Part shown: positions 12,359 through 51,582 of the stretch, one piece after another | Layout: each line of letters begins with the position of its first letter | How positions within the stretch are numbered: position 1 is the stretch's first letter | NCBI GenBank assembly: GCA_017429685.1 | Contig: JAFROL010000041.1 | Location: 1-64,000 of the forward strand | Reading direction: 5' to 3' | Length of the DNA stretch: 64,000 bases | Origin: Bacteroidales bacterium | Lineage (GTDB): Bacteria > Bacteroidota > Bacteroidia > Bacteroidales > P3 | The notes under the pieces: model-generated | Database searches by the model: none | The model's input: the letters and a program-made list of their open reading frames with translations, nothing else | What the model was told of the DNA's origin: nothing | Program-made: the position numbers and the translations under genes

Positions 12359-12603
12359 AAGCGGAAAACGGAAAGCGGAAAGCGGAGAACGGAAAGCGGA
12401 AAGCGGAAAGCGGAAAGCGAAAAGCGGAAAGCGAAAAGCGGAGAACGGAAAGCGAAAAGCGGAGAACGGAAAGCGGAAAGCGGAAAGCGGAAAGCGGAGA
12501 ACGGAAAGCGGAGAACGGAAAGATGAAAATGGAAAGCGAAAAACGGAAAGAGGAAAACGGAAAGCGGAGAACAAAGAACGAAAAGCGGAGAACGGAGAAC
12601 GAA
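12359..12603 (+). repeat. Heptamer array CGGAAAG, about 33 units
   Basis: The array starts at the stop codon of the ECF sigma gene. Units are CGGAAAG, CGGAGAA, CGAAAAG and CGGAAAA. The purine strand has no stop codon in any frame, which creates a spurious ORF from 12355 to 12612. Related arrays are at 44980, 49280 and 51520, and short copies lie inside three genes. Confidence 0.95.
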
Positions 12604-12639
12604 TATGTGTGAATTGAGAATGAGGAATGTTGAGCGGTG

Positions 12640-12750
12640 AGCAGCCTCGGAGAGGCGACACGCACGAAGTGCACGTAACACCATACAAGCCGAAGGCGCA
12701 GTGTGGTGACCAGACAAGCCAGCGACGGCAGCATCTCGAAGAGATGCGAC
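12640..12750. repeat. Run of four small hairpins
   Basis: The short inverted repeats CCTCGGAGAGG (12645-12655), GCACGAAGTGC (12662-12672), GCCGAAGGC (12689-12697) and GCATCTCGAAGAGATGC (12731-12747) follow the heptamer array. This looks like another intergenic palindromic repeat of Bacteroidales. No gene is visible from 12604 to 12828. Confidence 0.55.
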
Positions 12751-12828
12751 AACAGGACTAAAACGATAACTAAAACGATAAATATAAAATATAATACCAT
12801 TTTTGAAAAATATTAAAATATCATTCTG

Positions 12829-13704
12829 ATGAGCACGCTTAAAGATAAATTTGAAAACTACGAAGTACAACCCGACGAAAAGGTCTGGACATCAATAGAA
12901 AACACCCTGCACGGCAAGGCTGTGGCCCGTCGCCGCCGTATTGTCGCCGGCACGGCAACTGCCGTTGTCGCGGTGGCGGCTCTCGTCATTGCGCTCAACG
13001 CCGGAACCCGCCAGCCGGAACAGCCCGTCACTGCTTCGGCGCAACACGAGATATTCCTTGCGGGCACGGCTGCCAACACCGGCACCACCGCAGTCGCTGC
13101 CGACGTGTCTGCACAAACCGTAGTGGCAACACCTCAGGCCAAGCCCGCTGCGGTTGCTCCTCAGGCTACGGCCGTTGTCAGCGAGGAGGCAAGCACCTTG
13201 CCCGCAGCTGCGCTTTCTGCACCGCACAGCGAAACCGTCCTGCCCCAGCCGCAGGTTGCAGTCGTGCCGGAACCCGCTGTGGCCACCACGACACAGGCCG
13301 TGGCCGACAACAGTGTCCGTAGCAGCGAGCCCGTGGTCGAGCCACAGCCGCAGACCACCGCTGCCTCCGAGCCCCAGCGCAAGATGACTCAGCCCGAACG
13401 CAAGGCTGCCAACGACGAGCTGGTGGTGTGGATTCCCAACGCCTTCGCCCCCGACGACCCCAACGACGAGGTGCGCCTCTTCAAGGTGAAGCCCAACAGC
13501 GAGGCCAACCTCCTCTCGTACGAAATATTCATCTATTCGCGCGCCGGCCGCCAGGTGTACCACAGCAAGGACGTTAACGCCGCCTGGGACGGCACCGCCA
13601 ACGGCCATCAGCAGCCTATGGGCACCTACGTCTACATCATCGAAATCAACGATGCCGTCAAAGGCATTCAGCACAAGAAAGGCACCATAACGCTTATTCG
13701 TTAG
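12829..13704 (+). CDS. Membrane protein with anti-sigma-like N terminus and T9SS type B-like C-terminal domain
   Basis: The first 40 residues (KDKFENYEVQPDEKVWTSIE and a basic ARRRR) resemble the cytoplasmic head of Bacteroidetes anti-sigma-type proteins. One membrane segment follows (about residues 40-60). A long Ala/Val/Pro/Thr-rich linker covers about 65-195. The last 90 residues are a gliding-motility-associated C-terminal domain: VVWIPNAFAPDDPNDEVRLF, YEIFIYSRAGRQVY, WDGTANGHQQPMGTYVYIIE and GTITLIR. There is no cleavable signal peptide. Located after an ECF sigma gene, it may sense T9SS function and control that sigma factor; this is inference from arrangement. GC-rich codon use matches its neighbours. 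Confidence 0.8.
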   Translation: MSTLKDKFENYEVQPDEKVWTSIENTLHGKAVARRRRIVAGTATAVVAVAALVIALNAGTRQPEQPVTASAQHEIFLAGTAANTGTTAVAADVSAQTVVATPQAKPAAVAPQATAVVSEEASTLPAAALSAPHSETVLPQPQVAVVPEPAVATTTQAVADNSVRSSEPVVEPQPQTTAASEPQRKMTQPERKAANDELVVWIPNAFAPDDPNDEVRLFKVKPNSEANLLSYEIFIYSRAGRQVYHSKDVNAAWDGTANGHQQPMGTYVYIIEINDAVKGIQHKKGTITLIR

Positions 13705-13736
13705 TGGGAGACGGCCGCATTCCTGCGGTCGCTCCA

Positions 13737-13905
13737 AGGGAAGTTAAGGGGAAGTTTTTTGGGAAGTTAAGGGATGTTAAGGGAAGTTAAGGGACAATAG
13801 GGATTGCTGGTCACTATTGTCCCTTAACTTCTCTTAACTTCTCTTAACTTCTCTTAACTTCCCTTAACTTCCCTTAACTTCCTTTAACTTCCCTCTAACT
13901 CCCCG
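13737..13905. repeat. Large inverted repeat built from decamers
   Basis: The left arm has about five units of GGGAAGTTAA; the right arm has about eight units of CCCTTAACTT or CTCTTAACTT. The centre is a 20-bp arm pair (13781-13800 and 13813-13832, one mismatch) around a 12-nt loop. It lies 33 nt after the T9SS-type membrane protein gene and may end its transcript. Confidence 0.9.
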
Positions 13906-14118
13906 AAATTAACGCCCTCATCATCAGCACCCTCTTCTTATCAAAGTTCATATAAAGCCTAATTTAACTTTTATGAAAATTTTCGCCAGTAGACAATAAT
14001 AGGGCTTTGGTTGCGTTATGATAGGTGAAAAACGTTGCGAAGGTTAGTCTCGGAGCACGTTACCTAATGATTTTTAATTATTAATTATTAATTTTTAATT
14101 TTTAATTTACAAAGTACT
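13906..14118. other. AT-rich intergenic stretch
   Basis: No ORF of note. The end (about 14068-14110) is a run of TTAATTATTAATTTTTAAT repeats just before the DUF6266 start. No clear TTTG/TAnnTTTG promoter was found here. Confidence 0.5.
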
Positions 14119-15036
14119 ATGGGAAAAGTTGACAATGGTTTTCTTGATGGTTTCAGTGGTCGGCTGGGCAATGTTGTCGGATACTGCTGGCGTGGACGTA
14201 TGTGCGTGCGGTCGTTGCCGTCGCACTACAGTGATGCGCGGACGCCCGAACAGCTGCAGCAGCGTTCGCTGTTCAAGCAGGTGGTGCGTTTGGCATCGCG
14301 TGCCAAACGTGTGCTCAAGGTCGGTCTGCGTCAGGTTAGTCTTGATGCGCAGATGTCTGAAATCAATTATTTTATGCGGGTGAACAAACGGTGTTTTTCC
14401 GTCACTTCTGGTAGGCAGGCGCCACGCCTGCAAAATGGCGAGGCTGATTCGACAGGTCTCGCAGGCGTGGCACCTGCATCCCAGGAGCTTGCGATTGATT
14501 ATGAGAGTCTTCTGCTGGCCGACGGGCCTGTGGCTCCGGTTGCCTTTGGTGTGCCGCGCCTGTTGGATGAGACGACGCTATGCGTTGATTTCGAGAAGAA
14601 TCCGCTACGCCGTGTGGTCCATTCCGACGATTTGGTTTATGTGGCTGCCTATTGTCCTGAGTTGGGCGACTTCGACCTCTCGGCGCCGGTCTATCGTCGC
14701 AGCAACAGGTTGACAATGTGCTTCAACGATTTTTGGAGTGGCCGCGAGGTCCACCTGTGGGGTTTTGTTGCCGACGGGAAGGGTAGGGCTTCGCGCAGCC
14801 AGTATCTGGGTTCTCTGCTGCTGTCGGACGAGGTCTCTTCGGCAGATGATGAGAACTTAGGCCCTTATGGTGTGTTCACTTTTGGAAATAGCTCTTTTTC
14901 AGCGCAAAATGGTGACGTTGCCGACGCGGCTGACGACCACTTGCGGGGAGCCCTTGGTGGTGTAGTCGGCTTTCCAGATGTAGGTGCCCTGGGGACAGAC
15001 GTGTCCTTTGGCGGTGCCGTCCCAGGAGCCGGTTAG
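14119..15036 (+). CDS. DUF6266 family protein, carrying a repeat insertion
   Basis: The N-terminal 95 residues (NGFLDGFSGRLGNVVGYCWR, SLPSHYSDARTPEQLQQRSL, SEINYFMRVN) match the DUF6266 pattern of Bacteroidetes proteins of unknown function. The core continues with ELAIDYESLLLADGPVAPVA and ends around SRSQYLGSLLLSDE (about residue 238). Two oddities are visible. A palindromic repeat pair (14408-14478) is inserted in frame where the family normally has a short loop before the LAIDY strand. The last 65 residues are Gly/Ala/Asp-rich and overlap the convergent T9SS gene by 138 nt antisense, so the original stop codon seems lost. The protein is DUF6266 with altered ends; function is unknown. Confidence 0.7.
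   Translation: MGKVDNGFLDGFSGRLGNVVGYCWRGRMCVRSLPSHYSDARTPEQLQQRSLFKQVVRLASRAKRVLKVGLRQVSLDAQMSEINYFMRVNKRCFSVTSGRQAPRLQNGEADSTGLAGVAPASQELAIDYESLLLADGPVAPVAFGVPRLLDETTLCVDFEKNPLRRVVHSDDLVYVAAYCPELGDFDLSAPVYRRSNRLTMCFNDFWSGREVHLWGFVADGKGRASRSQYLGSLLLSDEVSSADDENLGPYGVFTFGNSSFSAQNGDVADAADDHLRGALGGVVGFPDVGALGTDVSFGGAVPGAG
14408..14478 (+). repeat. Paired palindromic element inside the DUF6266 gene
   Basis: GCAGGCGCCACGCCTGC (14415-14431) and GCAGGCGTGGCACCTGC (14461-14477) are reverse complements with one mismatch, 29 nt apart. The first copy lies in a 28-nt block (14408-14435) that matches the minus strand at 49274-49247 at 26 of 28 positions. Confidence 0.85.
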
Positions 15037-16920
15037 CAGGTCGAACGAGGTTATGAAGTTGCCTGCACGTGAGTAGATGTATACCGTTCCTGCGATGACT
15101 TGGTCTGTGGCGATGGCGAAGGTGCGGTTGGTGGATTCGTCGGGCGTGAAGGCGTTGGGAGCCCAGAACTGGTGCGTGTTGTTGCGTATGGTCAGCGTGG
15201 TGCTGTCGGTGCACCCGTACCTGTTACGGGCAAAGAGTGTCACGTCGACCGAATCTTCGGTGATGGGGAAGACAAAAGTGCATATGCGTGCGGTGTCGTT
15301 GCGGTCGCCGATTGTCCAGATGCGCGATTCGCTGTCGGTGATGTCGGTGAGCGTCACGTTGTAGTTGTCGTTGCCCACGGGATTGGGGTAGGCGCGTATT
15401 TGGGCATAGTAGGCTTCGTCGGAGATGGAGAGATGCAGCCTCAGTATCGAGTCGCAGGGCGTACGGTGCAGGACGTAGACCGGCGACAGCGAGATGTCGT
15501 CGTATGTTATGCCGTCGATCCAGGTGTAGGGAACGCCGTTGCATATTTTTCTCATCACTTCGATTGTGTCGGCATTGATGACTCTGATTATCGCCGTGAC
15601 ATTGCTGTCGGCGCCGTTGACGGTTTGTAGGTTGTAGCGCAGGATGCAGGAATTGTAGAACGTCGAGTCGAGCCATACGAGAGGCAGGTTGTAGCTGCAT
15701 ACGGAGGTGTCGAGTTTCAGGTCGATGTTGCGCCATACGTTGAGGTAGAAATGTACGATGCTGTCGCATCCGAAGCGGTCGGTCAGCGGGAAGATGTAGT
15801 TTGATATTGAGTCGTCAAATTGGATTTCGTTGTAGGTATAGGGCAGGTTGTTTTCGATGACGTCGCGGTGGATGTCGATGTTTTTCTTTGCTCTGAAGGT
15901 CACGAAGGTGCTGGTATCGGTGACGTTGCCGCACTCGTCGAAGATTTTGAAGATGTAGCGCACTGTCGAGTCGTGGGTGATGTTGGCCGGCAGGGTGAGG
16001 TAGTATGAAGAGTCGTTGATGCGTACTGCGCCGGGGCCGAGGACGGCAAAGGAGTCGACAGGGCATTCGTTGGACTCGACCAGGTTGCCGTCGAGGGCCA
16101 GCTCCCAACTGAAAAGGTATCCGTTGTCGCCGCTATAGCCGTCGATGACTTTTACGGTCCATTCGCCGTTCAGCGGGCATCCTATCAGGGAATTGAAGTT
16201 TTGTTCAGGATGGTAGAAATTGGTGTGCGCGGCGACATTGCTTGAGTCGACACGTCCACCGTGTGCGTGTCCTGTCCGGTAGATAATGCCGTCGGAGGAG
16301 GCATACTGATAGTCGGATATGGTGTTGTCGCTCCAGCAGTAGTTCCATCCTGTTCCTTGCGGGTTTAGGTCTTTGTTGCAGCCTCCGTGATCATAGGTCG
16401 ATGGTATCCCCAGGTCTTCGTATCCCATCAGGTTGGTGTGATTATTGTTCCAGTTGCGGGCATTCTCCGGAATGGAGCTGTAGCACATCGATGTAGGGGA
16501 ACCTCCAAAATTCATAATGGTCGCATTGTTTCCGTTGGGGCAGAAGAGCGCGATGTAGAGGTCGGCGATGTAGGAGTGTTCGATATTCAGCCTCAGGTAG
16601 CGTATTGCCTGTGGTGACGTAATCTGGGCTCCGGGAGCAAAGTCGTTGAAGTTTACCGACGAGGTGTAGGCGCATCCCATACTGCCGCAGGGGATGCCGT
16701 CGGGCAGGAAGACGGTCTCGACGATGCCTCGAGTGACTTCGGCGAATTGGTACATTACGTTGTGACTTTCGTCGTAGCCGAAGGTGATCAGGATGCTGTC
16801 GCCAAGACAGATATTTTCGGGTATGTCAAAACGTGATATGTTCTGTGCCCTCGCTGTGGCTGTCGCCGACAGGAGAATTAGGAGGAGCATAGCTTTGTAT
16901 GTGTTGCGAAGTTTGAACAT
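14899..16920 (-). CDS. T9SS type B secreted protein with P-domain-like region
   Basis: A signal peptide (residues 1-25, ending TARAQ) is followed by a region with NIEHSYIADLYIALFCPNGN and GCPLNGEWTVKVIDGYSGDN (about 110-280), the jelly-roll pattern of proprotein-convertase P domains without a protease domain. The middle (300-570) consists of short Ig-like repeats. The C terminus (about 590-673) is a gliding-motility-associated sorting domain: FWAPNAFTPDESTNRTFAIA, VYIYSRAGNFITSF, SWDGTAKGHVCPQGTYIWK and VGNVTILR. It is exported by T9SS and kept at the cell surface, probably as an adhesin-like structural protein. It lies next to a second, larger cargo gene of similar type on the same strand. 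Confidence 0.88.
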   Translation of the reverse strand: MFKLRNTYKAMLLLILLSATATARAQNISRFDIPENICLGDSILITFGYDESHNVMYQFAEVTRGIVETVFLPDGIPCGSMGCAYTSSVNFNDFAPGAQITSPQAIRYLRLNIEHSYIADLYIALFCPNGNNATIMNFGGSPTSMCYSSIPENARNWNNNHTNLMGYEDLGIPSTYDHGGCNKDLNPQGTGWNYCWSDNTISDYQYASSDGIIYRTGHAHGGRVDSSNVAAHTNFYHPEQNFNSLIGCPLNGEWTVKVIDGYSGDNGYLFSWELALDGNLVESNECPVDSFAVLGPGAVRINDSSYYLTLPANITHDSTVRYIFKIFDECGNVTDTSTFVTFRAKKNIDIHRDVIENNLPYTYNEIQFDDSISNYIFPLTDRFGCDSIVHFYLNVWRNIDLKLDTSVCSYNLPLVWLDSTFYNSCILRYNLQTVNGADSNVTAIIRVINADTIEVMRKICNGVPYTWIDGITYDDISLSPVYVLHRTPCDSILRLHLSISDEAYYAQIRAYPNPVGNDNYNVTLTDITDSESRIWTIGDRNDTARICTFVFPITEDSVDVTLFARNRYGCTDSTTLTIRNNTHQFWAPNAFTPDESTNRTFAIATDQVIAGTVYIYSRAGNFITSFDLLTGSWDGTAKGHVCPQGTYIWKADYTTKGSPQVVVSRVGNVTILR

Positions 16921-16927
16921 CGTGGCA

Positions 16928-17190
16928 CTCGAATTTAAGCGAACTTTATCACCGAATTAATTGTTTTTTATCACCGAATTAATTGTTTTTTATCACCGAA
17001 TTAAGCGAATTAGTCGAATTTTTTTATACAAATTTTGTTTTGCGAGCAAAACTCGAATTTAAGCGAATTTTTAGAGGTTACTGTAATTATTTGTTTTGAA
17101 TACGAACTTCACGAAAAACATTAATCTCACAATTCACAATTTTCACAATTCACAATTCACAAATCACAATTCACAAATCACTATTCACAG
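16928..17190. repeat. AT-rich intergenic region with three kinds of short direct repeats
   Basis: TTTATCACCGAATTAATTGT occurs in a 22-nt period, three copies from about 16946 to 17003. CTCGAATTTAAGCGAA occurs at 16928 and 17052. From about 17127 to 17190 there is a run of TCACAATTCACAA-type units. No gene is visible in this 320-nt gap. Confidence 0.8.
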
Positions 17191-17199
17191 TTCACTATA

Positions 17200-17234
17200 A
17201 AAAAGAAGCCCACAGTGGGTGTGGGCTTCTTTAA
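17200..17234 (-). terminator. Intrinsic terminator of the large T9SS cargo gene
   Basis: AAGAAGCCCACA (17203-17214) and TGTGGGCTTCTT (17220-17231) form a 12-bp stem. On the minus strand it is followed by a T run (A run at 17197-17204). It is 10-15 nt past the stop codon at 17244. Confidence 0.88.
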
Positions 17235-17243
17235 AGGATGCTG

Positions 17244-30829: not shown

Positions 30830-33265
30830 ATGAAGAAATTATTTTTGGAAAACAAGCATAATCCTTGGTTCTGGCTGTTTGTCGCTTTGGCTGGCGCGCT
30901 GCTGGTGGCAATGCCGCTAATGAGCCTCGATGCAGGCAACAGCGGCGACGAGGACAAGTTCCAGATTCCCCAGGGCCGTTTCGTGATGGACTATTTCCAC
31001 AGTGACGGCGCCGACACAACCTGTATGCAGGATGTGGTGACTCTGAACGGGAAGGAGCAGAGCTGGAACCTGAAATATTACGGCTGCTCGTTCGATGTGG
31101 TCACCGAATGGATCAACCAGACTTTCGGCATAGACGACATTGCCCGCACGCGTCACGTGTGCAACTCGCTTATGGGCTGGCTGATAGTCTTTTTCGGGGC
31201 AATGATAGCCTACCGTATCGGTGGCTGGCGTGCCGGATTTTTCACAATGCTGTTGCTCTTTCTTTCGCCACGCCTGTTGGGCCATTCATTCAACAATCCC
31301 AAGGATATACCGCTGGCTGCTGGCATCATTATGTCGATATATTATATGATGATGTTCTTCCGTCAGGTGACTCCGCAGGTTGTTGCCGATACCGCAGCTT
31401 CGAAGGGCAAAAAAGCATTGTCGAAGGTCCAGTATCCGGAGCAGGCCTTTTCGGACAAGGTTACCCGCTGGTTAGCCATATTCCTTTTCGTTCTGGCATC
31501 GCCATTCCTCATCAAGGCGACGGGCGTCGGCTTTACGGTGCTGCTTGTAGCACTTTTCGTAGTTGTTCTGATGATAAAGGATGCCCCAAAGTTCAACCCG
31601 TTGACCCTTGCTATGCTGGCTCTTTCGCTGGCTTTGGCAGTAAGCAATCGTATCGGCGGTTTGATTGCCGTCGGATATATGGGATTATGGGGTTTGCTGT
31701 GGCTTATCCGCTACGGCAAGAGCGTCGGTGGAGCTACGATAGGCAAGACCATCGTTGCAGCGCTGATGGTGTGTGCCCTAGGTTTCTTTGGAGGTCTGCT
31801 GCTGTGGCCCTATGCCTTGCAAAGCCCCATTCACAACAGCATCGAAAGCTTCAAGCTGATGTCGCAATTTGATGTTCAGCTGCGCCAGCTGTTTGAGGGT
31901 TCTATGGTTATGTCGAGCAGTCTTCCGTGGTACTATACGCCCAAGTTTATGCTTATGACCATTCCGCTGGCTGTTATCGTCGGCTGGCTGATGTATCCTT
32001 TCTTTGGAGCCTTCAAGCGCGATCGTCGCATCGAAAGCATAATGGTTTATTTCTGTTTCCTTTTCCCTGTAATATGGATTGTGGTTACAGGAGCTAATGT
32101 CTATGGCGGCTGGCGTCATTCGCTGTTTGCTTATCCGCCAATGGCTGTTGCCGCCGGATTGGGCTTTGATGCCTTTGCCGAGTGGGCCGGCCGGAAGAGC
32201 GGAAAGCGGAAAGCGGAAAACGGAAAGCGCGGTGTTGCGTGGGTCGAACTGGTTTGTTCGCTGGTGCCTGTGTGTCTGCTGGTGCCTCCGGCATTGCACA
32301 CTGTCCGTAACCACCCCTACGAATATGTCTATTTCAACAAGTTGGCTGGTGGCGTGAAGAATGCTTTCGGTCACTACGAGCTCGACTACTACTACCACTC
32401 GATGCGCGAAGCCACCGAGTGGGTCGTAGCCAATGCCGCTCCCAAGTCCGATGGCGAGAAAACAATCGTGGGCTCGTGGCACATCGAGTCGACCAAGTAT
32501 TTCCTGCGCAACGACACGTCGCGCTTCGAAACGCGCTTCGTGCGATGGGCCCAGCGCTATGAGTTCGATTGGGATTATCTCGTGTTCCCACTTACAGGTG
32601 TCAGTGGTGATTATCTGCTTGGCAACAACTTCCCGCCCAAGGACTGCGTCCACACCGTCGATGTCGACGGAATGCCTATCGCTGTGGTGCTGAAACGAGC
32701 CACCAAGGACGACTATTACGCTATGCAGCAGCTCAAAGCTGGTAATGTCGATAGTGCCATCGTGCTGTTCGGCAAAGCCCTCGAAGTGAATCCCGTTAAC
32801 GAGACGGCACTCAGTAATCTGGCAAACATCAGTCTTCAGCAAGGCAAAACCGACGAGGCTGCCGACTACTGCAACCGCATCTTGGCTGTCGATCCGTCGA
32901 ATCCCCAGGCCGGACAGATGCTTGTGTATGCCTACCTTAATAGTGGACGCCAGCAAGAGGCTGCAGCATTGATTGACAAGATGAAAGCCAATCCTGTGAA
33001 CGCATTCCCGTTCACTATCACGGCGCAGCTCTATGCCCAGCAAGGCAACATCAACGGCGCCATTAGTGAACTGAATGCTATGCTCGACCGCGGCTTGATG
33101 GACCAGGACGCTCTGAACCTGTATGTCCAGCTGCGTATGTCGCAGGGCAGCGACCAGAACAGTGCGTTATACGGTTTCTATGCAGCCTATGCCAACGGCC
33201 TTGAAAAGAGTGGCGACAAGAAATCAGCCGAACAGATTCGTAAACAGATAAACGGTGGAAGATGA
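30830..33265 (+). CDS. GT39-like polytopic membrane protein with C-terminal TPR repeats
   Basis: The first 530 residues hold about ten membrane segments. After the first one comes NSGDEDKFQIPQGRFVMDYF, an acidic periplasmic loop like the catalytic loop of GT39/ArnT-type lipid-linked sugar transferases; LSPRLLGHSFNNPKDIPLAA follows further on. A soluble region (540-640) is followed by about three TPR units (645-800: GNVDSAIVLFGKALEVNPVN, GKTDEAADYCNRILAVDPSN, GNINGAISELNAMLDRG). A heptamer repeat copy lies in frame near residue 460 (SGKRKAENGKRG), in a loop between membrane segments. The stop overlaps the next gene (ATGA). The likely role is sugar transfer to an envelope acceptor, with the sugar donor made by the preceding gene product. 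Confidence 0.78.
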   Translation: MKKLFLENKHNPWFWLFVALAGALLVAMPLMSLDAGNSGDEDKFQIPQGRFVMDYFHSDGADTTCMQDVVTLNGKEQSWNLKYYGCSFDVVTEWINQTFGIDDIARTRHVCNSLMGWLIVFFGAMIAYRIGGWRAGFFTMLLLFLSPRLLGHSFNNPKDIPLAAGIIMSIYYMMMFFRQVTPQVVADTAASKGKKALSKVQYPEQAFSDKVTRWLAIFLFVLASPFLIKATGVGFTVLLVALFVVVLMIKDAPKFNPLTLAMLALSLALAVSNRIGGLIAVGYMGLWGLLWLIRYGKSVGGATIGKTIVAALMVCALGFFGGLLLWPYALQSPIHNSIESFKLMSQFDVQLRQLFEGSMVMSSSLPWYYTPKFMLMTIPLAVIVGWLMYPFFGAFKRDRRIESIMVYFCFLFPVIWIVVTGANVYGGWRHSLFAYPPMAVAAGLGFDAFAEWAGRKSGKRKAENGKRGVAWVELVCSLVPVCLLVPPALHTVRNHPYEYVYFNKLAGGVKNAFGHYELDYYYHSMREATEWVVANAAPKSDGEKTIVGSWHIESTKYFLRNDTSRFETRFVRWAQRYEFDWDYLVFPLTGVSGDYLLGNNFPPKDCVHTVDVDGMPIAVVLKRATKDDYYAMQQLKAGNVDSAIVLFGKALEVNPVNETALSNLANISLQQGKTDEAADYCNRILAVDPSNPQAGQMLVYAYLNSGRQQEAAALIDKMKANPVNAFPFTITAQLYAQQGNINGAISELNAMLDRGLMDQDALNLYVQLRMSQGSDQNSALYGFYAAYANGLEKSGDKKSAEQIRKQINGGR
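32190..32233 (+). repeat. Short heptamer array inside the GT39/TPR gene
   Basis: About five units of CGGAAAG/CGGAAAA, in frame, encode SGKRKAENGKR. Length is compatible with the frame on both sides. The repeat is purine-rich on the coding strand like the intergenic arrays. Confidence 0.85.
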
Positions 33266-43690: not shown

Positions 43691-43728
43691 TACTTAATAA
43701 AGTCAATTCTTAAATCAGTCGACAAATA

Positions 43729-44979
43729 ATGAACATAAAATCTATTCCTGTACTTCTGCTCACTGGCTATCTTGGCAGTGGCAAAACAACTTTACTGAAC
43801 CGCATCCTTTCCAACCGCCGCGGCATCAAATTCGCCGTCATCGTCAACGACCTCGGCGAAGTCAACATCGACGCCGACCTCATCGAAAAAGGTGGCGTAG
43901 TGGGCAAAAAGGACGACAACCTCGTGGCCCTGCAAAACGGCTGCATCTGCTGCACCCTCAAAATGGACCTCATCGAGCAGCTGCGCGACATCACCAGTCA
44001 GCACCGCTTCGACTACATCGTCATCGAGGCCAGCGGCATCTGCGAACCCGAACCCATAGCCCAGACCATCTGCTCCATACCCACAATGGGGCCGGAATAC
44101 GTCAAGGACGGCATTCCCGTGGTCGACAGCATCGTCACCGTGGTCGACGCGCTGCGTATGAAGGACGAGTTCGGCAGCGGCAAGAACCTGCTCAAGCCCG
44201 GCCTGGCCGAGGACGACATCGAGAACCTCGTAATCCAGCAAATCGAGTTCTGCAATATCATCCTGCTCAACAAGGCCTCGGAGGTTGAACCAGCCGAATT
44301 GGGTCGCATCCGCGAAATAATCCGCGCCATACAGCCCAAGGCCGAAATCATCGATTGCGACTATTGCGACGTCGACTTCGACAAGATTCTGAACACGCGT
44401 CTGTTCGACTTCGACCGTGTGGCCACGTCGGCTGCCTGGATCGACGCCATCGAGGGACACCACGAGGACGAGGACGAAGAACACGAGCATCATCACCACG
44501 ATGACGAAGACGAAGAAGAAGACCATCACCACGACGAGCACGATGATGACGAGCACGAGCACCACCACCACCATCATCACCATGACCACGACGACGAGGG
44601 CGAAGCCGAGGAATACGGCATCTCGACCTTTGTCTACTATCGTCGCGAACCGATGAATATCAGCCGTTTCGACGACTTCATCGCCCGCCGTTGGCCTAAG
44701 GGCGTCATACGCGCCAAGGGCATCTGCTGGTTCCTCTCCGAGCCCGACACCTGCTACCTTTTCGAGCAGGCCGGCAAGCAAGTGTCGTTGCGCGACACAG
44801 GCCAGTGGTACGCAACGATGCCCGACGAGGAGCTGCTTGACTTTATGCGCCGCAACCCCGACCTGATGCGCGACTGGGACGACACCTACGGCGACCGTAT
44901 GCAGAAGCTCGTCTTCATCGGCCAGCACCTCGACCGCGACGCCATCACCGCCGAACTCGACGCCTGCCTGTCGAAGTAG
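43729..44979 (+). CDS. CobW/COG0523 GTPase, metal chaperone type
   Basis: A G3E-family GTPase that delivers a metal to target enzymes. Walker A is GYLGSGKT (13-20), the signature metal motif CICC at 72-75 (GCICCTLK), then VIEASGICEPEP (about 102-113) and the base-recognition LNKASE. An extreme His/Asp/Glu-rich segment spans residues 244-295, with runs of up to eight His, before the C-terminal CobW domain (ISTFVYYRREPMNISRFDDF). His-rich members are usually zinc-related. The length (416 aa) is above average because of the His-rich loop. Confidence 0.92.
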   Translation: MNIKSIPVLLLTGYLGSGKTTLLNRILSNRRGIKFAVIVNDLGEVNIDADLIEKGGVVGKKDDNLVALQNGCICCTLKMDLIEQLRDITSQHRFDYIVIEASGICEPEPIAQTICSIPTMGPEYVKDGIPVVDSIVTVVDALRMKDEFGSGKNLLKPGLAEDDIENLVIQQIEFCNIILLNKASEVEPAELGRIREIIRAIQPKAEIIDCDYCDVDFDKILNTRLFDFDRVATSAAWIDAIEGHHEDEDEEHEHHHHDDEDEEEDHHHDEHDDDEHEHHHHHHHHDHDDEGEAEEYGISTFVYYRREPMNISRFDDFIARRWPKGVIRAKGICWFLSEPDTCYLFEQAGKQVSLRDTGQWYATMPDEELLDFMRRNPDLMRDWDDTYGDRMQKLVFIGQHLDRDAITAELDACLSK

Positions 44980-45104
44980 CGGAAAGCGGAAAACGGAAAG
45001 CGGAAAGCGGAGAACGGAAAACGGAAAGCGGAAAACGGAAAACGGAAAGCGAGGCAGACGCGCCAGCCACTAACAAATTAACACATTAACGAATTAACTC
45101 ATTC
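44980..45104 (+). repeat. Heptamer array plus TAACACATTAACG element
   Basis: The array starts directly after the TAG stop of the cobW-like gene (about ten units to 45050), followed by GCAGACGCGCCAGCCACTAA and CAAATTAACACATTAACGAA, ending 4 nt before rsmG. The same order of parts occurs at 51478-51586. Confidence 0.9.
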
Positions 45105-45107
45105 GAA

Positions 45108-45734: not shown

Positions 45735-45754
45735 TCATTGTCTCGTATTGACGT

Positions 45755-45815
45755 ACTAACGCCTTTGAGGCCGCGTCAGCCTCTAACGCATTAACACAAT
45801 AACGCACTAATGCAT
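45755..45815 (+). repeat. TAACGCATTAACAC element before the Sel1 gene
   Basis: GCGTCAGCCTCTAACGCATT is followed by AACACAATAACGCACTAATG. It is related to the second half of the repeat at 45050 and to the minus strand at 51513-51484, without a heptamer array. Confidence 0.75.
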
Positions 45816-45829
45816 TTAAATATATAAGT

Positions 45830-48800
45830 ATGAAGACATTCGCTAATTCGTTGCTCGGCGTGGCCTGCTGCTTAATGCTGCTCTTTCAATGCTCGACGGC
45901 CAATGCCCAAGCCGACCAGAAACTGATTGACAAAGCCAATGCTGGCGACATTAAGGCTATGCGTCTGCTTGCCTTCTGCTACGAGCGCGGGGCTGGTGTG
46001 GCTCACGATTCGGCTATGGCCCTGCAGTGGTACCAGCGTGCTGCCGACAAGGGCGATGGCGAGGCGTGGCTTTGCATTTCGCGCTACTATAGGGAAGGCC
46101 GGCTGCTGCCTGCCGACACGGCCCGCTTCCTGGCCATCCGTAAGGAATGGGCCGACAAGGGTCTGCCTAACGGCATTGCCGCTTTGGGGTATGCATATCT
46201 CCTTGGATGCGGAGTGGAGGCCGACACGGCAAAGGCTATGAAACTTATCGAAGAAGCTGCCCGAAAAGGTTCAGGATGGGCGCTTGGCTCGATTGGCGAC
46301 AACTATACCTACGGAGTTTTCGGCTATCCGCGTAACAACAAACTGGCGGAGCAGTATTATAAAAAAGCGCTAAAGGCTGGCGATTTGGTGAACTATGCCC
46401 GCCTTGCCTATCTTTATTCAATAATGGGTGATGCCAAGAATACTTGGAAATACATCCAGGAGGCAAAGAAGTGGAACGATCCCGCCGTAAGGATTCTCGA
46501 GGCCGGATGCTACTTCATCGGCACCGCTGAGGTCGCCGCCGATCAGCGCAAAGCTCTGCAGATAATCTCCGATGTCGTCAGCCAGAACAATATGGCCTTC
46601 GATGAGGCTGGGCAAATGTTTATGGACGCCACCGACCCCGCTTTGCGCGACAGCCTGAAGGCCCTGTCGTACTGGCAAAAAGGTGCCGCGCAGGGCGATG
46701 CAGAATGCCGCCTGAACCTGGCGCGCTATTATCTGAACAATCAGCAATTTGACAAGTCGATACGTTACCTTAAGGATGTCATCAACGACCCCGCTGGCAA
46801 CGAACAGCAGGGCGCAACGTGTGCGTCGATGGCGCGTATCTGCTTCGGCGGATTGGTGAAGGAGCAAGGCAGCGACTCGGCGTTGTACTGGCTGAATATG
46901 GGTGTGGACCGTTTCAAAAGTGCCGAATGTGCCACGATGCTGGGCGATTTTTATGCCGAGCAGCAAAACGATGTGACAAAGGCTATTGCCTTCTACGACA
47001 AGGCATTCACGCTTGGCGACACCGATGCCATTGTCGGCATTGGACGTATGTATGCATACACAGGACAAACGTCCGAAGCCATCAGCACCTTCAACCGATA
47101 CATATCCTATGGCCGCCCCGACGGATACTATTGGCTGGCAATGGTATACGACAATATCCCCGATACCGGCAAGGAGCTTGAGGCCCTCAACAATGGCGAC
47201 AAGGCCGGCAGCGCCCTTTGCCAGCAGGTGTTGGGCAATATCTACGAAGCTGGGGCCATCGGTGAAAAGCCCGACTATAAGAAGGCCGAAAAATATTACC
47301 TCAAATCGTCCACTTCCGCCTCGCTGGATAAACTGGGTGTCCTCTATCTCAATGGTTCGCTGGGCAAGCAGAGCCCGAAAGACATCGAGAAGGGACTGGC
47401 ATACGTGCAGAAAGCGGCCGATATGGGCAATATCGATGCTATCTACCGTTTGGGTTATATGTATGAGACTGGCGACTTCGTTGGCGAAGCCGACCAGGAA
47501 AAGGCGTTGTCGTACTTCAAGCTGCTGGCCGACAACGATATTCCGGCCGGTTATTTCAAAATGGGACTTTATTACGAACTTGGCGACGGAGGCTTGGAGC
47601 AGGATATGACCAAGGCCGTCGAATACTACAACCGTGCTGCCGATATGGGCTACGGGCCGGCAATGCGCTATCTTGGCGACTTCTACCGCATCGGCCAGAA
47701 TGTTCCGCTCGACAAGAAGAAGGCTTTCGAGTATTACAACAATGCCGCTTCGCAAGGCGATGCATCGGCCGTATACTACATCGGCCGTTCCTACCTCGAA
47801 GGGTGCGGCGTCGACATCGACACGTCGGCGGCAATACCCTACCTCAGGTCGGCAGCGACGCAGGATGTCGGTCAGGCAGCCTTCCTTTTGGCCGAATTCT
47901 ACAACTACGCCAAAGGCGGTTTCCCTGCCAACGTCGACTCGGCTATATACTATTATATGTTGGCCCACAACAACGGCAGTGGCGATGCAAGCTACGCTAT
48001 TGGCCGTCAGCTTATAAACGAAAACTACCCGAAAGAAGCTGTCGAATATCTCAACACCGGAGCCCAGCGAGGCAACTACGATGCAATGGTGCTCTTTGCC
48101 GTCTGCCTGCAGGAGGGCTACGGCATCGAGGCCAATCCCGAAGAGGCCTACCGCATATTCGAGAATGTAGCATCGCGCGTCAACAACTCGTCGGCCTACT
48201 ATTATATGGGCACAGCCCGACTCAACGGCCGCGGATGCCAGCAGAGCGAACGGCTCGGAAAACTCTATCTCGACACGGCCGCGTCCCTGGGCAACATCGG
48301 CGCAATGACGGCCCTGGCCCAGTGCTACCTGAACGGATACGGCTGCGAACCCGACACGGCGGCCGCCATAAAGTACTACCGGCAGGCCATCGACGGTGGC
48401 TCGCTAACAGCCTGCAACCGTTTGGGTTATCTCTACGAAGCGCGCGAAGAGTACGAGAAAGCCGTCGCTTGCTATCAGCAATCGGCCGATGGCGGCAATT
48501 ACGAGGGTATGTGCAGCCTTGGACTCTGCTACGAGAAGGGGCACGGCGTCGTGCTGAGCTACCGCAAGGCCTACGACCTCTACAAGCGTGCCGCCGACGC
48601 TGGATATCATCGTGGTTATCTGATGATTGCGTTCTGCTACCTCGAAGGCATTTTCGTCGAGGAAGACAACGCCAAGGCCCTGCAATGGTTCGAAAAGGGG
48701 GCCGAAGCCGGTAATCTGCTGGCGATGTACAATGCCGCCACGATGTACGAGGAGGGCGAAGAGGGCGTCAAGCGCGACCTCAAGCGTGCTAAATACTGGT

Positions 48801-48862
48801 ACCAGAAGGCCGCCGCCGAAGGCTATGAACCGGCCGTAAACGCCCTGAAACGAATGAAATAA
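45830..48862 (+). CDS. Exported Sel1-repeat protein
   Basis: The signal peptide (residues 1-27, ending ANAQ) contains QCS, but the cleavage site looks like signal peptidase I. The mature part is an array of about 25 Sel1-type (TPR-like) repeats of 36-40 aa, for example AMRLLAFCYERGAGVAHDSA, SVMCSL-like variants (GMCSLGLCYEKGHGVVLSYR) and LAMYNAATMYEEGEEGVKRD. Repeats near 300-470 are more degenerate. Sel1 solenoids bind proteins, so it may be a periplasmic scaffold. There is no enzymatic domain or sorting domain. Confidence 0.9.
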   Translation: MKTFANSLLGVACCLMLLFQCSTANAQADQKLIDKANAGDIKAMRLLAFCYERGAGVAHDSAMALQWYQRAADKGDGEAWLCISRYYREGRLLPADTARFLAIRKEWADKGLPNGIAALGYAYLLGCGVEADTAKAMKLIEEAARKGSGWALGSIGDNYTYGVFGYPRNNKLAEQYYKKALKAGDLVNYARLAYLYSIMGDAKNTWKYIQEAKKWNDPAVRILEAGCYFIGTAEVAADQRKALQIISDVVSQNNMAFDEAGQMFMDATDPALRDSLKALSYWQKGAAQGDAECRLNLARYYLNNQQFDKSIRYLKDVINDPAGNEQQGATCASMARICFGGLVKEQGSDSALYWLNMGVDRFKSAECATMLGDFYAEQQNDVTKAIAFYDKAFTLGDTDAIVGIGRMYAYTGQTSEAISTFNRYISYGRPDGYYWLAMVYDNIPDTGKELEALNNGDKAGSALCQQVLGNIYEAGAIGEKPDYKKAEKYYLKSSTSASLDKLGVLYLNGSLGKQSPKDIEKGLAYVQKAADMGNIDAIYRLGYMYETGDFVGEADQEKALSYFKLLADNDIPAGYFKMGLYYELGDGGLEQDMTKAVEYYNRAADMGYGPAMRYLGDFYRIGQNVPLDKKKAFEYYNNAASQGDASAVYYIGRSYLEGCGVDIDTSAAIPYLRSAATQDVGQAAFLLAEFYNYAKGGFPANVDSAIYYYMLAHNNGSGDASYAIGRQLINENYPKEAVEYLNTGAQRGNYDAMVLFAVCLQEGYGIEANPEEAYRIFENVASRVNNSSAYYYMGTARLNGRGCQQSERLGKLYLDTAASLGNIGAMTALAQCYLNGYGCEPDTAAAIKYYRQAIDGGSLTACNRLGYLYEAREEYEKAVACYQQSADGGNYEGMCSLGLCYEKGHGVVLSYRKAYDLYKRAADAGYHRGYLMIAFCYLEGIFVEEDNAKALQWFEKGAEAGNLLAMYNAATMYEEGEEGVKRDLKRAKYWYQKAAAEGYEPAVNALKRMK

Positions 48863-48935
48863 GCCAGTTGCGACTGCATATTCCTAAAGCCTGATGGCAG
48901 GGCGCTGAAGGTTTGAAAAAAACTGGAGGCTTGAA

Positions 48936-48967
48936 AAAAGAGCTGCGAAACTAATCGCAGCTCTTTT
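48936..48967 (+). terminator. Intrinsic terminator after the Sel1 gene
   Basis: AAAAGAGCTGCGA and TCGCAGCTCTTTT form a 13-bp stem with a 6-nt loop, ending in T-rich sequence. Confidence 0.9.
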
Positions 48968-48989
48968 ATTTTTCCCTTCCAGTCCCGAT

Positions 48990-49232
48990 GGTTTCGGTAG
49001 GAATTCCGCCTGCAAGGCGACCTGACAAAATGTCAGTCGCACGAAATCCTAACCAAAGCCCTATCATCTTCTACCGTGGTAAAAGGAGGTAAGAATTTGA
49101 TAAGAATTTGGGTAGAATTTGATAAGAAGATGGTCCTGTTTTTGTGGCGGTTATGAAAGGCGATTTTTGGCCCTTTTTCCCGTTTTTGAAACTTTTTTTG
49201 CACAAAAAACCTGACATTTTGTCAGGCTTTTT
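48990..49232. other. Intergenic region with a folded element and a second terminator-like hairpin
   Basis: At 48990-49055 the outer arms GGTAGGAATT and AAATCCTAACC enclose CGACCTGACA / TGTCAGTCG. At 49204-49232 ACCTGACATTTTGTCAGGC forms a hairpin followed by T runs. Both contain the CTGACA/TGTCAG core. Between them are direct repeats GAATTTGATAAGAA (about 49095-49125). I see no gene between 48863 and 49374. Confidence 0.6.
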
Positions 49233-49246
49233 GTTTTTGTTTTTGT

Positions 49247-49374
49247 TTTTGCAGGCGAGGCGCCTGCGTACCAGTTTATCGCTTTTCCGCTTTCCGTTTT
49301 CCGCTTTTCGTTTTCCGTTTTCCGTTTTCCGCTTTCCGTTTTCCGCTTTCCGTTTTCCGCTTTCCGTTTTCCGC
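49247..49374 (-). repeat. Heptamer array and palindromic element after the beta-mannosidase gene
   Basis: On the minus strand the array of CGGAAAA/CGGAAAG units begins directly at the TAA stop (49375-49377) and runs to about 49281. It is followed by CTGGTACGCAGGCGCCTCGC and CTGCAAAA (49274-49247), the element also found inside the DUF6266 gene. Confidence 0.9.
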
Positions 49375-51477
49375 TTATTTGTTGTACAGGTCGTTCAGGG
49401 TGCGGACGACGACGGTTGTTGGGGTGGCGGTGGCGTCTTGGGGGATGCCGTAACCCAGTGTGTTGCCCATCTCGACGGGGGCGGGGATGAAGCGGACGGT
49501 GACTTGTTGCCCTTTCTTGAGGTCGAAGAAGTTGCGGTTGAAGTGGCCGTGACGGAAGGGGCGGGGCTCGATGCAGACGTCGTAGAGGTCGCTCAGGGCG
49601 CGGATGGTTACTGTCAGTACGCCGTCTTCAACGCGCTGGTTAAAAGTGTATTGCGCCTTGTCATAGTGGCGGTCTTTGGGGTATGTGGCATAGTACTGCT
49701 GCCATTCGTCCAAACTCCGTTCCAGACTTTCCGCTTTCCGCTTTCCGCTTTCCGCTTCAAAAAGCGCTTTTGCGCGGTAGTGGAGCGCCTTCCAGTTGCC
49801 GTAGTAGTCGATTGAGGACCAGCTGGCTACGGGCCAGCTGTCGTTAAGCTGCCAGTAGAGTGTGCCGGCGCAGCGCGGGTCGGCGATATGGCAGAGGATG
49901 CCGTAGCCGGTGCCCCAGGCCTGGAGCAGCTGGCTGACGTAGGCGTAGTCCGTGAGCGACAGGGTGCGGCTGTCTAAACCGTAGTAGCGTTGCATCGCCT
50001 TGTCGATGATTTCGCGGCCGCGAGCGTGCTTCTGGTGGTTGCGCAGGGTGGGGGAGTCGATGTCGAGCTGGTCGGCGGATGTGAACTGTCGGATGCTGGA
50101 AATCAGAGGATAGCTTTGGAATCCGTATTCCGACATAAAGCGGCCGGTTTTTTCCTTGTACATTTCGAATGGCTGCTCGCCCCACCATACGCCCCAATAG
50201 TGGCTGTCGCCGTGGGTGGTGCATTCGGGATGGCCCCAGCCATAGAGCGGCGAGGTGGTGATGTAGGGGCGATGCATTGGATCGCAGTCTCTTACGGCTT
50301 GCGCAAGGATGCTGGTCGAGCTGGTGTTGCTGGTGGTGCCGGGGTAGCCGAAGATGGTGTCCATCGCCTTCTCCAGCCGGGCGCGCTGCTCTGGCGTCCA
50401 GTTGAATTGTCCTTGCCAGCCCCAGTCTTCCCATCCGTTCTTGACCTCGTTGTTGCCGCACCAGAGGACGATGCAGGGGTGGCGTGCAATGCGGCTGACG
50501 TTCTCGTAGGCCTCGCGTTTGATTGATTCGAGCATCTCGGGGTCGTCGGGATAGAGCATAGTGGAGAAGTTGAAGTCCTGCCACACCATCAGCCCCAGCG
50601 AGTCGCATAGGTCGTAGAACAGGTCGTGCTCGTATATGCCGCCGCCCCAAATGCGTATCATATTGAATCCTGCCTCCTTGGCGGAGCAGAGCAGGTAGCG
50701 GTAGCGGGCCGCCAGCTGGGGCGACGTTGCCGGGAAGGTGTGCGCCGGAATCCAGTTGGCGCCTTTGATGAAGAGGGGTTTGCCGTCGCGGTAGAAGGCA
50801 AAGCTTTGGCCGATGGAGTCGGGCTGCTGGCGGAACTCGACGGGGCTGCTCGTAGGACTAGCATTTTTAGTAAGACTAGTACTACTAGAAGTACTAGTAT
50901 CATTAGTTATATACACCTCTTTCCATATTCCGCAGGTTGGCAGCTTGGCTCCCCAGTCCCAGCCTTGCTGGTAGGGGGCTATGCGCGTGAAAGCGCGCCG
51001 GTCGGGCAGGGTGATGCCGTAAATGGATTGATTGTATTCGTCTTGGAGAGGGAAAAAGGTTATCTGTATGCGGTCGCAGTCCTCGGGCAACTCCATCGTG
51101 TTTTGAACGAACATATTGTTCTCTGTCAGCACGTGTGACTCCTCGCCGTGATAGAGGTTGATAAGGCAATCGCCCGCAAGTCCTTCGAAAACAATCCAAT
51201 GCTTTTTGCCTTTGGGCAGATTCAGGCTGCTGATGTCTACCTGATAGGTCCACATCTCGTCGGCAATCCAGCGGACGCTGTCCTCGTTGGTGGCGAGGTA
51301 TGGGTCGGGAATGAGTCCGTTGGCCGTCAGGTCGGTGTGGATGAATCCCGGCACGGAGGCGGGATACCATTTGTCCTGATACTTGAATTGCCAGTCGGTC
51401 AGGTATATACGGTCGGCCTTCTGCGTCGAGCAGGCGGCAAACAACAGTGTGGCGACGATAAATAATAATTTCTTCAT
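49375..51477 (-). CDS. GH2 beta-mannosidase-like lipoprotein lacking the middle beta domain
   Basis: The lipobox FAAC (Cys-16) makes it a lipoprotein. The sugar-binding domain (about 20-190) and the TIM barrel (from about 225) are typical of family GH2 mannosidases: FIKGANWIPAHTFPA, MIRIWGGGIYEHDLFYDLCD, WCGNNE with acid/base Glu-344, and SEYGFQSYP with nucleophile Glu-450. Between them the usual immunoglobulin-like domain (roughly 100 residues) is missing; a Ser/Thr linker (191-212) coded by ACTAGT-type repeats takes its place. The C-terminal part contains a heptamer insertion (ESGKRKAESLER). Both catalytic residues are kept, so it may still cleave beta-mannosides outside the cell, but folding without the middle domain is uncertain. 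It is shorter (700 aa) than typical (about 850). Confidence 0.85.
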   Translation of the reverse strand: MKKLLFIVATLLFAACSTQKADRIYLTDWQFKYQDKWYPASVPGFIHTDLTANGLIPDPYLATNEDSVRWIADEMWTYQVDISSLNLPKGKKHWIVFEGLAGDCLINLYHGEESHVLTENNMFVQNTMELPEDCDRIQITFFPLQDEYNQSIYGITLPDRRAFTRIAPYQQGWDWGAKLPTCGIWKEVYITNDTSTSSSTSLTKNASPTSSPVEFRQQPDSIGQSFAFYRDGKPLFIKGANWIPAHTFPATSPQLAARYRYLLCSAKEAGFNMIRIWGGGIYEHDLFYDLCDSLGLMVWQDFNFSTMLYPDDPEMLESIKREAYENVSRIARHPCIVLWCGNNEVKNGWEDWGWQGQFNWTPEQRARLEKAMDTIFGYPGTTSNTSSTSILAQAVRDCDPMHRPYITTSPLYGWGHPECTTHGDSHYWGVWWGEQPFEMYKEKTGRFMSEYGFQSYPLISSIRQFTSADQLDIDSPTLRNHQKHARGREIIDKAMQRYYGLDSRTLSLTDYAYVSQLLQAWGTGYGILCHIADPRCAGTLYWQLNDSWPVASWSSIDYYGNWKALHYRAKALFEAESGKRKAESLERSLDEWQQYYATYPKDRHYDKAQYTFNQRVEDGVLTVTIRALSDLYDVCIEPRPFRHGHFNRNFFDLKKGQQVTVRFIPAPVEMGNTLGYGIPQDATATPTTVVVRTLNDLYNK
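49724..49768 (-). repeat. Heptamer copies inside the beta-mannosidase gene
   Basis: Four to five CGGAAAG units on the minus strand encode ESGKRKAES in frame, near the end of the TIM-barrel region. Confidence 0.85.
50842..50907 (-). repeat. ACTAGT-rich microrepeat replacing a protein domain
   Basis: The plus strand reads AAGACTAGTACTACTAGAAG and then TACTAGTATCATTAG. It encodes the Ser/Thr/Asn linker NDTSTSSSTSLTKNASPTSS where GH2 enzymes have a beta-sandwich domain. Confidence 0.75.
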
Positions 51478-51483
51478 AATTTT

Positions 51484-51582
51484 TGAAATTAATACGTTAT
51501 TGCGTTAGTGGCTGACGCAGTTTTCCGCTTTCCGCTTTCCGTTTTCCGCTTTCCGTTTTCCGCTTTCCGCTTTCCGCTTAGT
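51484..51582 (-). repeat. Heptamer array and TAACGCAATAACG element after the DUF486 gene
   Basis: On the minus strand the array (about nine units, 51581-51519) begins about 7 nt after the TAG stop of the DUF486 gene. It is followed by CTGCGTCAGCCACTAACGCA and ATAACGTATTAAT, ending close to the start codon of the beta-mannosidase gene. Confidence 0.9.

What the first reader, a model, noticed from the sequence alone, without database searches (positions are those of the whole stretch)
12359..51582. Heptamer arrays placed at gene stop codons, always purine-rich on the coding strand
Arrays of CGGAAAG variants follow the stop codons of the ECF sigma gene (12359), the cobW-like gene (44980), the beta-mannosidase gene (49374 downward, minus strand) and the DUF486 gene (51581 downward, minus strand). 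All are at the stop or within about 7 nt and are purine-rich in the direction of the gene. Four of four is unlikely by chance and suggests a mechanism tied to transcription or translation end, or selection on mRNA 3' ends.
Basis: seen in the sequence. Interest (0 to 1): 0.8.

Follow-up and report, generated by a model that had tools for sequence, protein, structure and literature searches.

The report
Heptamer repeat cassettes behind stop codons
An uncultured gut bacterium carries over a hundred short seven-letter repeat arrays that often begin at the stop codons of genes or sit in frame inside proteins, apparently spreading sequence that is kept wherever it does no harm.

Summary
The genome has 443 three-unit CGGARAR matches and 115 array starts. 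In the 437 kb examined, 124 arrays have at least 3 units: 68 intergenic, 56 inside ORFs. Of 56 merged intergenic arrays flanked by genes, 49 run sense away from a stop and 39 begin within 11 nt of it; random placement gives about 3. In 25 of 41 stop-linked arrays no base separates codon and array.

Nearly half the arrays are inside ORFs, two in this window. Array-less stops show no purine excess, and convergent genes are not enriched. The array is the 5' module of a polar spacer cassette: heptamers, palindrome, then octamers or decamers towards the next start (order 20 of 20 and 14 of 14). Stop position was conserved at three genes checked, changed at one; the repeat unit there differs between species. 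I favour spreading, slipping repeats filtered by selection; the copying agent is unknown.

Closest known: GGGAATC heptamers near stops in Xanthomonas and Nostoc (PMC4692102). New: exact abutment, polar cassette, in-frame replacement of protein loops.

The parts
12357..12601 (+). CGGAAAG/CGGAGAA-type array (245 nt, about 35 heptamer lengths, degenerate towards the end) abutting the TGA stop (12356-12358) of the ECF sigma gene 11828-12358
32192..32229 (+). Array inside an ORF (30830-33265, 811 aa, TPR domains), sense and open in frame (reads SGKRKAENGK); not near a stop
44978..45051 (+). Array starting directly after the TAG stop (44977-44979) of the CobW gene 43729-44979
   Evidence: eight orthologs of 77-83% identity match to residue 414-416 of 416 and show no CGGAAAG array after their stops, though one (L084) has a different array, TGAACTCT, there
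45050..45107 (+). Rest of the spacer cassette: palindrome-like GAGGCAGACGCGCCAGCC, then CACTAAC and ATTAAC octamers, up to the ATG of rsmG (45108)
49283..49374 (-). Array abutting the TAA stop (49375-49377) of the beta-mannosidase gene 49375-51477 (minus)
   Evidence: stop position conserved within about two residues in 6 of 7 orthologs examined, the seventh (L328) read in a wrong frame; 3 further partial loci not examined
49727..49757 (-). Array inside the beta-mannosidase gene, in frame (AESGKRKAES), about 10 residues that the 6 readable orthologs of 7 examined lack
51521..51579 (-). Array 7-10 nt after the stop (51587-51589) of the DUF486/DMT_6 gene 51587-51964 (minus)
51485..51521 (-). Rest of that cassette on the minus strand: CTGCGTCAGCCACTAACGCAATAACG, towards the mannosidase start at 51477

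Best explanation
The arrays are the 5' module of a polar, dispersed spacer cassette. Its order is stop codon, [CGGAAAG]n, GGCTGACGCGTCAGCC-type palindrome, then either [NNATTAAC]n octamers or ATAATTCGTATTGTC plus [CTTAACTTCC]n decamers, then the next start (not every copy has every module). How it works, as I read it: (i) arrays lengthen and shorten by slippage (inferred; spacer lengths differ between two close genomes, while in ORFs most changes keep the frame); (ii) cassettes and units are copied between loci, which pulls each genome towards its own units (shared segments are shown, the copying process is inferred); (iii) selection removes copies that break proteins or starts, so what is left sits between the stop and the next leader, or in frame in tolerant protein loops. 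The stop codon is then the left edge of free territory, and the sense orientation after stops reflects the cassette's polarity. Why it integrates with that polarity, and what copies it, is not known.
For: Polar order: heptamer before octamer in 20 of 20 tandem spacers that hold both, heptamer before decamer in 14 of 14; octamers sense-only in 31 spacers, antisense-only in 3, both in 2; spacers with a post-stop array have a median of 204 nt against 100 without. Sharp left edge: 25 of 41 stop-linked arrays have no base between codon and array, and in 18 the unit periodicity runs to the T of the stop. Dispersal: among the 150 nt after each array, 29 pairs of loci on different contigs share 30 nt or more exactly; most of these are repeat units alone, but 6 hold a non-tandem core, e.g. 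42 nt of L042/L070 spanning palindrome half, linker and TGTATTGTCC, and 41 nt of L041/L062. Spacer turnover: against G066, 39 of 47 arrays have at least two units at the ortholog and 8 do not (3 of the 8 keep one unit; 2 are one spacer with flanks of only 75% identity); one spacer has swapped its module between flanks of 94-97% identity, one has a different stop and spacer, and one ORF carries the full cassette where G066 has a short loop. Coding filter: spacer length differs at 13 of 13 intergenic arrays compared; intragenic length is unchanged at 8 of 18, and 8 of the 10 changed ones differ by a multiple of 3. The unit GTGAATT, which carries TGA, is inside ORFs only antisense in the G076 and G082 pieces (0 sense, 5 antisense). 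Site kept, unit changed: one PyrC site holds CTTTCCG, CTATCCG, GTTCTCC, ATTCAAA or CACAATTC repeats in five species (G034 and G005 have none there); the mannosidase stop is followed by CGGAAAG, GTGAATT-like or AAGTTCA-like repeats in three species and by none in others.
Against: No copying enzyme was identified. A test of 'one unit per genome' failed: GTGAATT, seen at G067 sites, gives only 1 three-unit match across G067, while G076 has 28. Neutral filtering does not by itself explain why spacer arrays are sense (38 sense-only against 3 antisense-only tandem spacers), nor why 9 of 13 arrays in convergent spacers abut the stop they run away from. Only 5 of the 13 intergenic length differences are multiples of 7, so slippage is not the only change. 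G035 and G069 arrays are mostly intragenic, with 3 of 9 intergenic ones at stops in each. In G066 the non-CGG arrays are not enriched at starts (12 of 99, null 9.3), unlike G000, so the start-side module is weaker there.
Confidence: 0.5

Rival explanations
1. Functional 3' element: the purine-rich array after the stop is kept by selection, for ribosome release, for mRNA 3'-end stability, or because its antisense strand (CTTTCCG, C/U-rich, weakly folding) is a Rho loading site that stops antisense transcription into the gene.
For: Position and orientation; antisense RNA of two window arrays folds less than shuffles (z 1.5 and 2.1); 39 of 47 sites shared with G066.
Against: No purine excess after array-less stops; no enrichment at convergent genes; arrays follow a minority of stops (4 of 45 in the window); 56 of 124 arrays are inside ORFs; CobW orthologs at 77-83% identity lack this array.
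Confidence: 0.15
2. Transcription-linked expansion: after the ribosome leaves at the stop, naked purine-rich nascent RNA hybridises to its pyrimidine template (R-loop), and the exposed strand promotes slippage or copying, giving arrays that start at the stop and are purine-rich in sense.
For: Would explain both sharp abutment and sense orientation after stops, also in convergent spacers. The R-loop idea is my inference; no data on it here.
Against: Many arrays are in translated ORFs; arrays of GTGAATT, with 4 of 7 purines, still run sense from stops (7 of 10 intergenic in the G076 and G082 pieces); does not explain palindrome, octamers and shared flanks.
Confidence: 0.13
3. REP/RAYT- or MITE-like mobile palindromes with repeat arms, moved by a transposase.
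For: Palindromes and full inverted pairs (one convergent spacer folds with z -5.4); in-ORF copies; 43 of 72 palindrome half-sites lie within 60 nt of an array, in a sample chosen around arrays. PF01797 matches in 12 of 16 genomes, G000 included.
Against: G066 has 73 array starts but no PF01797 match at 89% completeness; the two G000 PF01797 loci have no array, palindrome half-site or octamer in the 4-4.5 kb read (one G035 locus has an array about 0.9 kb away); the hairpin after the array differs by species.
Confidence: 0.13
4. Independent local slippage at each stop, with no copying between loci.
For: [quoted passage not shown]
Against: Same unit family at more than 100 loci and identical non-tandem segments of about 40 nt after arrays on different contigs.
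Confidence: 0.03

Closest known systems
GGGAATC / GGGGA(C/T)T heptamer repeats of Xanthomonas and Nostoc (Rehm et al. 2015, PMC4692102; seen: abstract, passages, Discussion)
   Same: Dispersed 7-nt arrays with variable unit number, mostly between aligned genes, many within 0-50 bp after a stop on the sense strand, some overlapping the stop; function unknown.
   Different: Those have GGG tracts, form G-quadruplexes in vitro and prefer four units, and also sit upstream of ORFs on the antisense strand. Here the unit has only GG, nearly half of arrays are in ORFs, abutment is exact in most stop-linked cases and the array is part of a polar cassette.
TAACTGA heptamer repeats of Beggiatoaceae, Cyanobacteria and some Bacteroidetes (MacGregor 2015, PMC4679880; seen: abstract, Introduction, the section on Cyanobacteria and Bacteroidetes)
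   Same: Dispersed directional heptamer arrays in spacers, also in Bacteroidetes, sometimes mixed with other heptamers, sometimes within ORFs.
   Different: In the main genome studied they sit mainly just upstream of start codons. Here the heptamer is at the stop; the TTAAC octamers on the start side are the nearer parallel.
REP/BIME and Rickettsia palindromic elements (PMC3733652; seen: passages found by search)
   Same: Many-copy palindromes in spacers and, for some, inside genes.
   Different: Arms here are heptamer arrays; GTAG/CGTC tags were not looked for; RAYT association not met.

Membership tests
Heptamer SSR arrays near stops (GGGAATC type, PMC4692102) | 7-nt unit, many dispersed loci, near the stop on the sense strand | tested here: met
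Heptamer SSR arrays near stops (GGGAATC type, PMC4692102) | G-tracts of three or more, as needed for the quadruplexes described there | tested here: not met
   Unit CGGARAR holds only GG (seen in the sequence)
Heptamer SSR arrays near stops (GGGAATC type, PMC4692102) | Preference for four units | not tested
   Arrays of 3 to 20 exact units listed; the distribution was not tested
Heptamer SSR arrays near stops (GGGAATC type, PMC4692102) | Under-represented within ORFs on the coding strand | tested here: inconclusive
   44 sense and 12 antisense intragenic of 124 arrays; many sense copies, but density against the coding fraction was not computed
TAACTGA repeats (PMC4679880) | TAACTGA unit within a few nt upstream of starts | tested here: not met
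   Different unit; CGG-family arrays near a start: 1 of 53
REP/RAYT elements | RAYT (PF01797) gene in the genome flanked by the repeats | tested here: not met
REP/RAYT elements | GTAG-tagged palindrome of 20-40 nt | not tested
   Palindrome GGCTGACGCGTCAGCC seen; tag not examined
Rickettsia-type palindromic elements in ORFs | In-frame palindromic element within conserved genes | tested here: met
   GH3, two sites; in the first the element stands in place of an ordinary loop of orthologs, so it is not a pure insertion. MiaB, PyrC and mannosidase carry arrays without the full inverted pair
Reverse-transcriptase-written repeats (telomerase-like, DGR; recalled idea) | RT (PF00078) in the genome | tested here: not met
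   No match in G000, G066 or G069

The most novel reading that the evidence does not exclude
An unidentified copying process writes a lineage's own heptamer into the genome in the direction of transcription, landing at the stop codon, and keeps rewriting the same sites (post-stop and tolerant protein loops) when the unit changes: concerted evolution of dispersed micro-arrays across a bacterial genome.
Probability: 0.15. Interest if true: 0.88.

Novelty: new variant of a known kind. Interest (0 to 1): 0.6.

Why it matters
Dispersed heptamers have been noted in Xanthomonas, Nostoc and Beggiatoaceae without an established function or origin. Here a group of related gut genomes shows some of the same sites with different units, in-frame copies inside conserved enzymes, and a fixed module order from stop to start. 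Close pairs such as G000 and G066 make the open question (slippage, copying or function) testable by comparing arrays site by site. It also warns gene callers and protein modellers that some loops such as AESGKRKAES are repeat DNA read in frame.

Tried and rejected
Selection for purines after all stops: no excess at array-less stops. Antisense protection at convergent genes: not enriched; in that scan only one convergent spacer (seen once from each side) holds arrays on both strands. Array-made stops as the general rule: stop position is conserved in CobW, in the gene before PyrC and in mannosidase; one counter-example, L052, where the stop changes with the array. In-frame origin of post-stop arrays: inconclusive; the 39 distances that are 11 nt or less fall 16/11/12 in phases 1/2/0, the sense intragenic arrays 25/10/9, phase 1 leading in both. 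Stop-codon type: no visible preference. RAYT and reverse transcriptase. G067 unit test: my prediction failed. First ortholog alignment was useless because several loci were in reverse orientation; repeated oriented. In one search one ortholog (L328) was read in the wrong frame and is not used. Viral contigs: 5 stretches hold four perfect units, none the octamer module as typed; of their 13 arrays the nearest sense stop is 11 nt away. Literature: seven searches; the listings show no report of CGGAAAG arrays in Bacteroidales. (the letters CGGAAAG with 'repeat') matches 1,685 papers, of which only 8 were listed, none on this; most subscription papers are not held.
Full report
Setting. The window is 64 kb of a 2.65 Mb, 52-contig genome. 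The best CobW relatives, at 74-83% identity, are mostly metagenome genomes of gut Bacteroidales, many from ruminants by their record titles. Genes named here rest on Pfam or on my reading of ORFs. Genes for the survey were called with a simple hexamer ORF caller trained on the fetched sequence, so single boundaries may be wrong.

Check of the observation. All four arrays exist as described. The window also holds two arrays of the same family inside genes, at 32192-32229 and 49727-49757, so the rule in the window is 4 of 6. The pattern CGGARAR x3 matches 443 times genome-wide and its backward control never; a start pattern finds 115 array starts, 100 of them listed. I fetched 47 stretches around listed arrays, which with the window make 436,592 bp. 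In these, 124 arrays have at least 3 exact units: 68 intergenic, 44 intragenic sense, 12 intragenic antisense; 59 of the 68 intergenic arrays follow a same-strand stop. After merging neighbours, 56 have called genes on both sides: 49 run sense from a stop and 39 start within 11 nt, against a mean of 3.1 and a maximum of 11 when each is placed at random in its own spacer with random orientation. In spacers between tandem genes 38 are sense and 3 antisense (P 1e-8).

Sharpness. Extending the unit periodicity leftwards, the first base that breaks it is the T of the stop codon in 18 of 41 stop-linked arrays, the second base in 5 and the third in 2; two more arrays reach into the ORF. In the 18 cases the stop is a T followed by array bases. 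Stop position is nevertheless ancestral at three genes checked: eight CobW orthologs of 77-83% identity match to residue 414-416 of 416, the gene before PyrC ends in KF plus stop in own, G066, G069, G034, G067 and G005, and the mannosidase ends within about two residues of the same place in 6 of 7 orthologs examined, the seventh misread. The exception is L052, where G066 has a different stop and spacer.

Anatomy. After many arrays comes a GGCTGACGCGTCAGCC-like palindrome and octamers (GCATTAAC, ACATTAAC), or ATAATTCGTATTGTC and decamers (CTTAACTTCC). When a tandem spacer has both, the heptamer is first in 20 of 20 (octamers) and 14 of 14 (decamers); octamers end 1-20 nt before the start in 19 of 33. 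Among TRF arrays in G000, CGG-family arrays are near stops in 37 of 53 (null 6.1) and near starts in 1 of 53 (null 3.7), whereas other arrays are near starts in 29 of 128 (null 13.9) and near stops in 25 of 128 (null 16.4). In G066 the CGG family is near stops in 21 of 27 (null 4.4), but other arrays favour stops (22 of 99, null 11.2) and not starts (12 of 99, null 9.3). In one convergent spacer (L041) two arrays face each other round the palindrome and form a strong hairpin (z -5.4). Two window arrays alone show no unusual folding in sense (z -0.8 and 0.15).

Inside proteins. Arrays sit in frame in ORFs, several of them conserved enzymes. Against orthologs, MiaB shows a lengthened linker; at two GH3 sites array-palindrome-inverted array stands where most orthologs have ordinary sequence (G066 shares the second); the mannosidase carries about 10 extra residues. 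In L044 the full cassette stands where G066 has a short loop.

Turnover. G066 has 73 array starts and G069 50. Of 124 G000 arrays, 47 have both flanks in the G066 stretches; 39 of these have at least two units there and 8 do not, of which 3 keep one unit and 2 (one spacer) have flanks of only 75% identity. For arrays with more than 85% flank identity, spacer length differs in 13 of 13 and intragenic length in 10 of 18, 8 of those 10 by a multiple of 3. At one PyrC site five species carry five different repeat units and two carry none; two stops likewise carry different units, or none, in different species. CGGARAR x3 counts fall from 443 in G000 through 275 in G069, 222 in G066, 69 in G077, 64 in G035, 33 in G082, 22 in G076, 14 in G033 and 3 in G067 to 0 in G034, G005 and G078. 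GTGARTT x3 gives 28 in G076 and 0-5 in the other 11; the G067 prediction failed with 1. In the G076 and G082 pieces, 15 GTGAATT arrays are 7 sense after stops (3 at 3 nt, the others at 10-73 nt), 3 antisense intergenic, 5 antisense intragenic and 0 sense intragenic; since GTGAATT repeats carry TGA in all frames, the last figure is what a coding filter predicts.

Dispersal. In the 150 nt after arrays, 29 pairs of loci on different contigs share 30 nt or more exactly. Most of this is the tandem units themselves; 6 pairs include a non-tandem core, the best being 42 nt of L042/L070 and 41 nt of L041/L062. The junction GGAAAGCAACCTTGACGCGTCAGCC occurs at two unrelated sites, an ORF of G000 and a spacer of G066.

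Generality. In 80 related loci (686,917 bp) TRF finds 91 arrays, 37 of them intergenic. Of 36 with genes on both sides 13 touch a stop (null 8.7, P 0.02) and 5 a start (null 6.0); some units contain the stop codon in register, such as TGAACTCT in L084 and TAGGCCCCA in L123. Purine-richness is not general (8 of 14 contacts). In the G035 and G069 pieces arrays are mainly intragenic (19 sense, 1 antisense; 14 sense, 4 antisense), with 3 of 9 intergenic arrays at stops in each. In convergent spacers of G000, 9 of 13 arrays start within 11 nt of the stop they run away from.

Mechanism. Shown: dispersal of identical modules, polar order, length change, in-frame constraint, and a few sites kept while the unit changes. 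Inferred: slippage, inter-locus copying and selection as filter. Not known: the copying agent and the cause of the sense polarity. PF00078 is not found in G000, G066 or G069; PF01797 is not found in G066 and its two G000 loci are not flanked by the repeats.

Known relatives. Rehm et al. 2015 (PMC4692102; abstract, passages and Discussion seen) describe heptamers that prefer 0-50 bp after stops on the sense strand, some overlapping the stop, function unknown. MacGregor 2015 (PMC4679880; abstract and two sections seen) describes TAACTGA arrays mainly before starts, also in Bacteroidetes. The present case is of that kind, with a different unit, exact abutment, a cassette and frequent in-frame copies.

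Noticed in passing
window 13736-13794 and 13820-13904: Decamer array AAGGGAAGTT followed by its inverse TCCCTTAACT after the gene ending at 13704: an inverted pair of the decamer family.
   Followed up: partly
window 44458-44571: 36-nt in-frame tandem repeat coding a His/Asp/Glu-rich linker in the CobW protein.
   Followed up: no
window 20-131 and 9215-9585: 5S rRNA and class A RNase P RNA (Rfam).
   Followed up: no
L036 3572-3731 (minus strand): Four copies at 44-nt spacing of a composite unit (heptamers, GAGGCTGGCGCGGC or similar, AAATTAA): tandem copies of a cassette-like unit.
   Followed up: no
G035 loci L272, L276, L282; G069 loci L301, L306: Arrays there are followed by other elements: GCGACACACCCC plus a hairpin-like stretch in G035 and GTAGGGGCGTACCCCCGTG in G069; the module after the heptamer differs by species.
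   Followed up: partly
L071 2597, 6890, 11384: Three neighbouring ORFs (685, 887 and 766 aa) each carry the same in-frame array with near-identical flanking sequence 123 nt before their 3' ends.
   Followed up: no
L318-L322: Five IMG/VR viral stretches hold CGGAAAG arrays, 13 in all, none abutting a stop as in the bacterium; their relation to the bacterial arrays is unknown.
   Followed up: partly
G066 contigs C205 and C102; G069 contigs C33, C80 and C109: Some metagenome contigs end in or near arrays, so array counts in these assemblies are probably too low.
   Followed up: no
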